Shown here in pieces: positions 40,028-41,936 of a stretch of DNA of 50,698 nucleotides. The position numbers and the translations under genes are program-made. This DNA comes from an uncultured Fimbriimonadaceae bacterium (GTDB taxonomy: Bacteria > Armatimonadota > Fimbriimonadia > Fimbriimonadales > Fimbriimonadaceae), in assembly GCA_937961665.1 (NCBI GenBank), contig CALGMO010000100.1:1-50698 (forward strand). The letters run 5' to 3'. The first letter of the stretch is position 1. Every line of letters begins with the position of its first letter. The notes beneath the pieces are model-generated. The model made no database searches. It worked only from the letters and a program-made list of their open reading frames with translations, and was not told the origin of the DNA.

Positions 40028-41473
40028 CTACAGAGTCTTCAGCGCCTTCGGCGGGAACAGCGCCAGGGCGGCCGCGCCGTGCAACGCCGCCTGCCCGCCC
40101 AAGGGCGACCGGAGGACGCGGAACTGCGGCCATCCCTTGCGGTAGCCGAGGTCGACCTCGATCCAGTCCGCAGAGCCGACGGGGCCGCTGAGCACCACGA
40201 TCTCCGGCAGCCAGATCGCGGCGACCGCGCGGATCGCCTCGCGAACGGCGGCGTTCGCCCGAGCCTTCTGCTCCTCCGTCGGCTTGGCAGCCGTGGACAC
40301 TCCGTCGAGAAGCTCCTCGAACGTCTGGCCCGTGCTCGTCGGCAGCTCGTGGAGCCGCGGGTGCTGGCCCATCGTGCCGACCACGAGCGACTGCTGGCTG
40401 CACAGTCCGCAGGACACGCTCTTGCCCACCAGCAGCGTCGCCACCCTCCGGCCGGCGAACTCCGGCAGGCACGCGTGGGCCCAAGCCGCCGCCAGGGCTC
40501 GGTTCAGCGACACCGTGGGCGCACCGATCGTCTCGGCCGTGAAGCGCGCGGTCCAGCCTTCCGGAACCTCCCACACGTTGCCGGAGCGTGGGTTCACGGT
40601 GCCGGGGCTCGCCACCGAGACGCATTCCACATCCCGCTGGGCCACGACGGACCGGAACCAGGCGATCCAACGGTCGGGACCACCCTCCAGCGGAGTCTGG
40701 TCGGTCTCCAAGAGCTTCCAGTCCTCGTCGAAAAGAGCGAACCGAAGCCAGTGCACGCCGATGTCGAACGCGGCGACTCGGCAGTGGCGCCGCGACGCCG
40801 CCTGGAGAAACCGGCGCGTCTGCGCCGTAGGATCGGTGATCGCCGCTCCGACCACGACGCCCGAGGCACCGATTCTCAGGGCCGCCTCGATCTGCCACTC
40901 CTCGGCGAACTGGCCCTCCGCCAGCACGGGCCGATCGGACAGCTGCACCACCCGCCGCAGGAAGTCCCAGTCCGGCCCGCCGCGCAGGCGGGGCTTGCCC
41001 GAGAAGCCGGCCAGGCCCGTGGTCACCGCGTCGCAGCCCGTGTGGATCGCGAACGCGGCCGTCTCCTCGTCGTCGCAGTCCGCCACCACCAGCCGACCGT
41101 GCGACCGGATGACCGAGACCAGGTCGCTCAGGCGCTCCCCGCGAGGCCTGGGCCTTGACGTCGCGTCCAAGGCGATCAGCTCGCACCCCGCGTCCAACAG
41201 CTCCCGGACCTCGTCGATCGTTGGGGTGGACCGCACGGGACTGTCGGGGTATTTGCGGTCGATCCGGCCGATCACGGGCAGGCCCGTCGCGGCTTTAGCC
41301 CTTCGGGCGGCCTCTGCGCCCTCGATGCGCAGCAGCTTGGCGCCGCCCTCGGCGCAAGCCCGCGCCAGGCGCACCCGGGCTTCGTGGTCATCGAGGGGCG
41401 AGCCTTCCCAGCAATGGACCGACGCCACCACCGGCGCCTCGCGCAGAAGCCGTCTCAGCGACGATCCGTCCAT
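40028..41473 (-). CDS. NanE-ROK fusion: ManNAc-6-P epimerase-like plus ROK kinase-like domains, both with altered catalytic residues
   Basis: The 481-residue protein joins a NanE-type TIM barrel (about 10-225) to a ROK sugar-kinase-like domain (about 232-478). This is the order of known NanE/NanK fusions, which convert ManNAc to GlcNAc-6-P. Barrel landmarks are LLRIEG (Arg49), PDSPVRSTPTIDEV, ADC (Asp132), VLAEGQ (Glu186) and VVVGAAIT. The family KRD motif reads DRK (72-74), so the catalytic Lys position holds Asp72. In the ROK part DIGGT is FDIGVHW, the catalytic Asp of NDANAAA is Arg325 (NRALAAA), and the zinc cysteines are missing. The tail LGGQAALHGAAALAL matches ROK. Start at the ATG 41473; an ATG at 41530 is less likely. 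A pseudoenzyme or a new specificity is possible. Confidence 0.85.
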   Translation of the reverse strand: MDGSSLRRLLREAPVVASVHCWEGSPLDDHEARVRLARACAEGGAKLLRIEGAEAARRAKAATGLPVIGRIDRKYPDSPVRSTPTIDEVRELLDAGCELIALDATSRPRPRGERLSDLVSVIRSHGRLVVADCDDEETAAFAIHTGCDAVTTGLAGFSGKPRLRGGPDWDFLRRVVQLSDRPVLAEGQFAEEWQIEAALRIGASGVVVGAAITDPTAQTRRFLQAASRRHCRVAAFDIGVHWLRFALFDEDWKLLETDQTPLEGGPDRWIAWFRSVVAQRDVECVSVASPGTVNPRSGNVWEVPEGWTARFTAETIGAPTVSLNRALAAAWAHACLPEFAGRRVATLLVGKSVSCGLCSQQSLVVGTMGQHPRLHELPTSTGQTFEELLDGVSTAAKPTEEQKARANAAVREAIRAVAAIWLPEIVVLSGPVGSADWIEVDLGYRKGWPQFRVLRSPLGGQAALHGAAALALFPPKALKTL

Positions 41474-41522: not shown

Positions 41523-41936
41523 TCAGGCAAGAAGGACCCGCTCGGCCAGGATCAACGCGACGAAGTCGTCGAAAGGTTCCGGAGGGACGAGCATGGTGGA
41601 GGGGAGCAGCCGCCTCCAGCCGCGCCGCGGGTTGTGCTCCCAATAGCGCTCGCGCGCCTGCATTGTGGTGTTCTTCTCGTCCACGATCAGGATTCCCAGA
41701 GACGGGGCCGACTCCCGCAGCACGTGCACGACCGGCTTGGAGTGTGTGCCCGACCCGACGATGGCCAGATCGGGCCTGCGGACGGCGAAAGCCTCCGAGA
41801 CGGCCGCGGCGAGCTCCTCCGTCCGAGCGATCTTCCGCCACAACAGCTGGATCTTCTGGTCCGGCCCTCGGCGCACCAGGGCCAGACCGCACTTCGCCGT
41901 CCCGGGATCCACCGCAAGAACCACCTTCTCGGGCAT
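41523..41936 (-). CDS. YqgF/RuvX-like RNase H-fold protein
   Basis: The 137-residue protein resembles YqgF/RuvX, which is tied to 16S rRNA 5'-end maturation. The opening VLAVDPGTAKCGLALVR matches the catalytic Asp strand. The IVDEKNTTMQARERYW segment corresponds to the conserved DERxTT region, and the end DDFVALILAERVLL holds the last acidic pair. The middle is divergent, so nuclease activity and substrate are not certain; a RuvC-like role is an alternative. The ATG lies 12 bases from the start of the DUF3084 stop codon, and TAGGCT, which contains that stop, ends 6 bases before it. Confidence 0.82.
   Translation of the reverse strand: MPEKVVLAVDPGTAKCGLALVRRGPDQKIQLLWRKIARTEELAAAVSEAFAVRRPDLAIVGSGTHSKPVVHVLRESAPSLGILIVDEKNTTMQARERYWEHNPRRGWRRLLPSTMLVPPEPFDDFVALILAERVLLA

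What the first reader, a model, noticed from the sequence alone, without database searches (positions are those of the whole stretch)
40028..41473. NanE-ROK fusion with both catalytic centres rewritten
The NanE half keeps Arg49, Asp132 and Glu186, but the KRD motif that carries the catalytic lysine is DRK (72-74). The ROK half has Arg325 in place of the catalytic Asp of NDANAAA, a broken DIGGT loop (FDIGVHW) and no zinc cysteines. Changes in both domains at once suggest a coordinated change of role, such as a sugar-phosphate sensor or a new enzyme. Decay is less likely, since the rest of both folds is well preserved.
Basis: partly seen in the sequence, partly recalled or inferred. Interest (0 to 1): 0.65.

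Follow-up and report, generated by a model that had tools for sequence, protein, structure and literature searches.

The report
Doubly inactivated sugar-enzyme fusion kept by selection
In one genus of Armatimonadota bacteria a two-part amino-sugar enzyme has lost the key catalytic residues of both parts, and the next enzyme of its pathway was not found in these genomes, yet the protein is conserved as strictly as an essential neighbour, so it has probably been reused for a non-enzymatic or new job.

Summary
Observation largely confirmed. Window 40028-41473, minus strand, encodes a 481-aa NanE-ROK fusion in a Fimbriimonadales MAG (Armatimonadota). The essential NanE lysine is Asp72, Gln11 is His20, the ROK catalytic Asp is Arg325, and both ROK phosphate loops are broken. 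Two details are wrong. Missing zinc cysteines are a trait of the whole Fimbriimonadaceae family, and the "KRD to DRK swap" is only K72D, because position 74 is variable.
The loss is genus-wide and genus-only. All 3 species share it; the roughly 27 to 56 fusion orthologues outside the genus that cover each site keep Lys and Asp. Decay is unlikely: dN/dS within the genus is 0.066 to 0.155 in both halves, the same as the adjacent glyS. The change was a burst on the genus stem: NanE-ROK is the most divergent of 23 compared, while glyS is among the least. NagA, the next enzyme downstream, was not found in any of the 3 genus genomes but was found in 33 of 34 other family genomes.
Best reading: an exapted double pseudoenzyme, most likely a phospho-ligand-binding regulatory or structural protein. 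What it does, and its ligand, are inferred. A new enzyme activity is not excluded.

The parts
40028..41473 (-). NanE-ROK fusion gene, 481 aa, ATG start at 41473, stop codon 40028-40030
   Evidence: orthologues with the same start in G001 and G002
40799..41473 (-). NanE-like TIM-barrel half, residues 1-225
   Evidence: Pfam NanE E=1.2e-40; NCBIfam NF002231 194.6 bits, cut-off 189; model aligns to 5zjb_A with Z 30.2, rmsd 1.7, 209 aligned
40031..40786 (-). ROK-like half, residues 230-481
   Evidence: Pfam ROK E=4e-4, 20.4 bits, below the 22.9 cut-off; model aligns to ROK repressor 5f7r_E (Z 25.7, rmsd 2.4, 243 aligned) and NanK 6jdc (Z 25.5, rmsd 3.0, 240 aligned)
41414..41416 (-). His20, equivalent of substrate-binding Gln11 of S. 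aureus NanE (Gln in every other covering orthologue)
   Evidence: role of Gln11 from PMC8482478
41258..41266 (-). Arg70-Ile71-Asp72: Asp72 replaces the essential catalytic lysine; Arg70 replaces an invariant Leu
   Evidence: K63A and K63E undetectable in SaNanE (PMC8482478)
41228..41233 (-). Arg81-Ser82 in place of Tyr-Ile at the N-acetyl-contact position (Phe72/Tyr75 of Sa/Cp NanE)
40916..40918 (-). Glu186, retained equivalent of Glu180
40751..40756 (-). Val240-His241 replacing Gly-Thr of the DxGxT ATP-phosphate loop
   Evidence: T10V loses activity in PsNagK (PMC10031466)
40496..40501 (-). Arg325-Ala326 replacing the catalytic Asp-Gly
   Evidence: D105N abolishes PsNagK activity (PMC10031466)
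40412..40423 (-). Lys351-Ser-Val-Ser354 replacing TGVG of the second phosphate loop
37923..40013 (-). glyS (glycyl-tRNA synthetase beta subunit), starts 14 bp after the fusion's stop codon; synteny anchor and selection yardstick
41523..41936 (-). upstream RuvC/YqgF-like gene, same strand, conserved neighbour within the genus

Best explanation
It is a genus-specific double pseudoenzyme derived from a bifunctional ManNAc kinase / ManNAc-6-P epimerase type fusion that Fimbriimonadaceae inherit vertically. In the ancestor of this genus the amino-sugar route was apparently abandoned (NagA not found), and both active sites were rewritten on that same branch while both folds were kept. Since then the protein has been under strong purifying selection. 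Most likely it now works without catalysis: the barrel keeps the backbone phosphate cradle (Gly187, Gly209) and the Arg49-Asp132-Glu186 network, gains Arg70 and Arg81, and so could bind a phosphorylated or anionic metabolite, with the fused ROK half serving as a regulatory or interaction module. Shown: gene, orthology, substitutions, selection, rate burst, NagA not detected in any of the three genomes. Inferred from published mutants: no ManNAc-6-P epimerase and no sugar kinase activity. Inferred only: ligand binding and regulatory role.
For: Identical loss in all 3 species of the genus, and in none of the covering orthologues outside it. Published K63A/K63E (NanE) and D105N (ROK NagK) abolish activity, and T10V and T132V lose activity. 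dN/dS 0.066 (NanE 0.080, ROK 0.056) and 0.155 in the two comparisons, equal to glyS at 0.072 and 0.135. NanE-ROK of the genus ranks 1 of 23 in divergence with a stem of 0.91, while its glyS ranks 21 of 23 with a stem of 0.45. NagA not detected in any of the 3 genus genomes, present in 33 of 34 other family genomes. AlphaFold model confident in both halves, pLDDT 89.9, pTM 0.89.
Against: No ligand, partner or regulon was found. The gene sits between housekeeping genes, and proximity to glyS occurs in other genera with intact enzymes, so context gives no function. With three sequences it cannot be shown that the pocket itself is specially conserved: 22 of 31 fully changed conserved sites are identical in the three, about the background rate. 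MurQ-type genes remain in the genus, so GlcNAc-6-P may still be made there. The genus genomes are draft assemblies in 140-420 contigs (two titled MAG), completeness 95, 73 and 96%.
Confidence: 0.5

Rival explanations
1. A new enzyme: the TIM-barrel pocket with Asp72, Arg70, Arg81 and His20 plus retained Arg49, Asp132 and Glu186 catalyses a different reaction on another phosphorylated substrate, and the ROK half is structural.
For: The pocket is rewritten with specific charged residues that are identical in the three species rather than randomised. The barrel still scores above the NanE family cut-off. A burst then constraint fits a new function.
Against: The ROK half lost its phosphate loops and base and is unlikely to supply kinase activity. 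No pathway partner in the neighbourhood. None of the fusion orthologues found outside the genus has this residue set.
Confidence: 0.25
2. A purely structural or protein-interaction scaffold: both folds are kept for oligomerisation or binding a partner, with no small-molecule ligand.
For: Constraint is even over both halves and both catalytic centres are dismantled.
Against: Arg49, Asp132, Glu186 and the phosphate-cradle glycines 187 and 209 are retained in all three species, which a pure scaffold would not need.
Confidence: 0.15
3. Decay: a pathway lost in the genus leaves a relic gene that is drifting towards loss.
For: NagA is undetected in the same genus and the stem branch is fast.
Against: Intact ORF in all three species with 77-93% identity and dN/dS as low as essential glyS, in both halves, over dS of about 0.55 to 1.04.
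Confidence: 0.05
4. It remains a catalytically competent epimerase/kinase with relocated catalytic residues (for example Lys74 for Lys72).
For: Lys74 lies two residues from the lost lysine in two of the three species.
Against: Position 74 is Val in the third species and variable throughout the family; there is no evident replacement for the ROK Asp; published single mutants are dead.
Confidence: 0.05

Closest known systems
NanE, N-acetylmannosamine-6-phosphate 2-epimerase (PF04131; C. perfringens 4UTW, S. aureus 6VVA/7MFS)
   Same: Fold, length, Arg49/Asp132/Glu186 network, phosphate-cradle glycines 187 and 209
   Different: Catalytic Lys is Asp72, Gln11 is His20, Tyr/Phe at the acetamide contact is Arg81; Arg208 is Asp in the whole Fimbriimonadaceae family
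NanE-ROK fusion of Fimbriimonadaceae (about 50 orthologues found here)
   Same: Domain order and length, vertical descent, glyS synteny in several genera (G008, G013, G019, G021)
   Different: Orthologues outside the genus keep Lys72, Asp325 and the GGT/GTG loops; the genus has lost all of them
ROK sugar kinases NanK/NagK (H. influenzae 6JDC, human GNE kinase 2YHW, P. shigelloides NagK 7P9L)
   Same: Fold; metal-ligand Asp237 and Asn324 kept
   Different: Catalytic Asp, DxGxT threonine and second phosphate loop replaced; zinc motif absent, as in the whole Fimbriimonadaceae family and in F. nucleatum NanK
ROK-family transcriptional repressors (NagC, Mlc, Lmo0178 5F7R)
   Same: A ROK fold that works as a ligand sensor rather than a kinase; 5F7R tops the ROK structural matches, tied with NanK
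   Different: No winged-helix DNA-binding domain; the N-terminal partner is a TIM barrel

Membership tests
NanE epimerase | Sequence and fold of the family | tested here: met
   NF002231 194.6 bits vs cut-off 189; Z 30.2 to 5zjb_A, rmsd 1.7, 209 aligned
NanE epimerase | Essential catalytic lysine (Lys63 Sa / Lys66 Cp) | tested here: not met
   Asp72 in all three genus members; Lys in all 55 covering orthologues outside
NanE epimerase | Arg40, Asp124, Glu180 equivalents | tested here: met
   Arg49, Asp132, Glu186
NanE epimerase | Substrate-binding Gln11 and Arg208 | tested here: not met
   His20 (genus only) and Asp214 (whole family)
NanE epimerase | ManNAc-6-P epimerisation | not testable with these tools
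   needs an enzyme assay
ROK kinase | ROK fold | tested here: met
   Z about 25 (rmsd 2.4-3.0) to NanK and ROK repressor structures over about 240 residues
ROK kinase | DxGxT nucleotide motif | tested here: not met
   DIGVH
ROK kinase | Strictly conserved catalytic Asp | tested here: not met
   Arg325 in all three genus members, Asp in 55 of 55 covering others
ROK kinase | CxCGxxGC zinc motif | tested here: not met
   absent here and in all family orthologues aligned; also absent from F. nucleatum NanK
ROK transcriptional repressor | N-terminal winged-helix DNA-binding domain | tested here: not met
   N-terminal half is a NanE-type TIM barrel

The most novel reading that the evidence does not exclude
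A bifunctional sugar enzyme was converted on the stem of one genus into a two-module, non-catalytic metabolite sensor (barrel binds a phosphorylated ligand, dead ROK half transmits), while its own pathway was discarded, giving a class of signalling pseudoenzyme built from NanE.
Probability: 0.3. Interest if true: 0.7.

Novelty: new variant of a known kind. Interest (0 to 1): 0.5.

Why it matters
Loss of both catalytic centres of a fused two-enzyme protein on one branch, with the protein then held as strictly as an aminoacyl-tRNA synthetase, is an unusually clear case of enzyme-to-pseudoenzyme conversion, with about 50 intact orthologues as controls and a matching apparent pathway loss (NagA). 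No description of a NanE pseudoenzyme or of a ROK pseudokinase was found in the papers searched, though that search is limited. Annotation pipelines would name it a ManNAc-6-P epimerase, since it passes the NCBIfam cut-off, and so mis-assign a pathway that the genus seems to lack.

Tried and rejected
Catalytic-lysine swap (KRD to DRK): rejected, position 74 is variable and Val in the third species. Zinc-cysteine loss as evidence: rejected, family-wide. Strain-specific lesion: rejected, genus-wide. A second intact copy in the genome: not found. Genome-wide fast evolution of the genus: rejected with glyS as the yardstick. Replacement of the pathway by the AGE/PIG-L/ROK cluster on another contig (G000:C78): not supported, its ROK-like gene also occurs in NagA-positive G006 and the epimerase fits cellobiose 2-epimerase best, though below that model's cut-off. 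NagB (PF01182) and NanA searches were not informative: NagB is patchy in the whole family and NanA hits are all below the family cut-off. Amidohydro_1 search was too broad. Paper searches for NanE/ROK pseudoenzymes found nothing relevant.

Full report
What is there. The reading frame lies on the minus strand, ATG at 41473, stop at 40028-40030, 481 aa. Residues 1-225 are a NanE-type TIM barrel (Pfam 1.2e-40, NCBIfam NF002231 above its cut-off), and residues 230-481 are a ROK-type half that scores just below the Pfam ROK cut-off. The AlphaFold model is confident in both halves (pLDDT 89.9, pTM 0.89). It aligns to V. cholerae and C. perfringens NanE at Z about 30 and to NanK and ROK repressors at Z about 25. 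The gene is flanked upstream by a RuvC/YqgF-like gene and downstream, 14 bp after its stop, by glyS, all on the same strand.

Where it comes from. Record titles of the orthologues place it in Fimbriimonadales/Fimbriimonadaceae, Armatimonadota. The fusion is found in most members of the family: 32 of 37 family genomes match P0001. Outside these Armatimonadota records the hits cover only the NanE half. The genome has a single copy.

The residues. In S. aureus NanE the pocket residues are Gln11, Arg40, Lys63, Asp124, Glu180 and Arg208; K63A, K63E, R40A and D124A are undetectable, Q11A keeps 12% and R208A 4% (PMC8482478). The window protein has His20, Arg49, Asp72, Asp132, Glu186 and Asp214. Asp214 is shared by all family members, so it is not part of the lesion and suggests that the whole family binds its sugar somewhat differently from textbook NanE. 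In the ROK NagK of P. shigelloides, D105N and D6N/A abolish activity and T10V and T132V lose activity (PMC10031466). Here the equivalents, by motif, are Arg325, Asp237 (kept), His241 and Lys351. The missing zinc cysteines are a family trait, and F. nucleatum NanK is zinc-free with its active-site features conserved (PMC5458393).

Orthologue test. Two overlapping genome collections were aligned: 30 orthologues and 58 fusion loci plus the window. Every orthologue outside the genus that covers the site has Lys at 72, Gln at 20, Asp at 325, Gly at 326, Thr at 241 and Gly at 352. All three species of the genus (window, G001/UBA8783, G002/SKW193) have Asp, His, Arg, Ala, His and Ser. Position 74 is variable and is Val in G002, so a moved catalytic lysine is excluded as a shared solution. 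Counted at columns conserved at 85% or more, the genus departs at about 35 of 130 sites, spread over both halves; other members depart at about 2 to 21.

Decay or new constraint. Nei-Gojobori dN/dS is 0.066 between the window and G001 (NanE 0.080, ROK 0.056) and 0.155 between the window and G002 (0.145 and 0.163). Neighbours over the same pairs give 0.043 to 0.080 and 0.072 to 0.153; glyS gives 0.072 and 0.135. The gene is therefore held about as tightly as glyS. On the stem of the genus the picture is reversed. Among 23 compared members (the window's genome and 22 outside the genus), the genus's NanE-ROK is the most divergent while its glyS is among the least (rank 21), and the stem is 0.91 against 0.45 substitutions per site (family tree). 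A burst of change followed by strong constraint is the pattern expected of a change of function. These are simple estimators, not a formal branch-site test, and dS near 1 for the second pair is approximate.

Pathway. NagA, which consumes the GlcNAc-6-P made by NanE, is found in 33 of 34 family genomes outside the genus and in none of the three genus genomes; the other genome without it, G030 (1.5 Mb), also lacks the fusion. With completeness of 95, 73 and 96%, three independent misses are unlikely. A non-homologous deacetylase is not excluded, and MurQ-type genes are still present in the genus, so GlcNAc-6-P could still arise there.

Synteny. The fusion is adjacent or nearly adjacent to glyS in G008, G013, G019 and G021 as well as in the genus, and beside HIT and uracil-DNA-glycosylase genes in several others (gene names there by eye from the translations). 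This supports vertical descent rather than a recruited paralogue, and it says nothing about function.

Interpretation. It is very likely that the protein is neither a ManNAc-6-P epimerase nor a sugar kinase (about 0.9, from published mutants of equivalent residues, not measured here). That it is selected for something else is strongly supported. What that is remains inference: the barrel keeps the phosphate cradle glycines 187 and 209 and the Arg-Asp-Glu network and gains two arginines, which fits binding of a phosphorylated or strongly anionic metabolite, and non-catalytic ROK domains acting as sugar sensors are well known in NagC and Mlc (own knowledge). A new enzyme activity is the main rival.

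Noticed in passing
Whole Fimbriimonadaceae NanE-ROK family, window residue 214 (codon 40832-40834, minus strand): Arg208 of canonical NanE (sugar hydroxyl contact) is Asp in every family member, within an N/T-D motif, so even intact members may prefer a different substrate.
   Followed up: partly
L043 22-4761 (another contig of the same genome, G000:C78): An AGE/cellobiose-2-epimerase-like gene, a PIG-L-type deacetylase and an atypical 476-aa ROK-like protein lie together; the ROK-like protein has orthologues only in G002 and G006 among 19 family genomes searched and matches no NCBIfam model at 1e-5.
   Followed up: partly
G000:C120:3-1490 and orthologues G001:C237, G002:C91: All three genus genomes carry an additional 586-610 codon open frame with two MurQ/SIS-like matches, beside a normal MurQ match; comparable second matches were not seen in the other family genomes searched.
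   Followed up: no
G034:C1:790707-791731: NagA of this relative is split over two reading frames, possibly a frameshift or a sequencing error.
   Followed up: no
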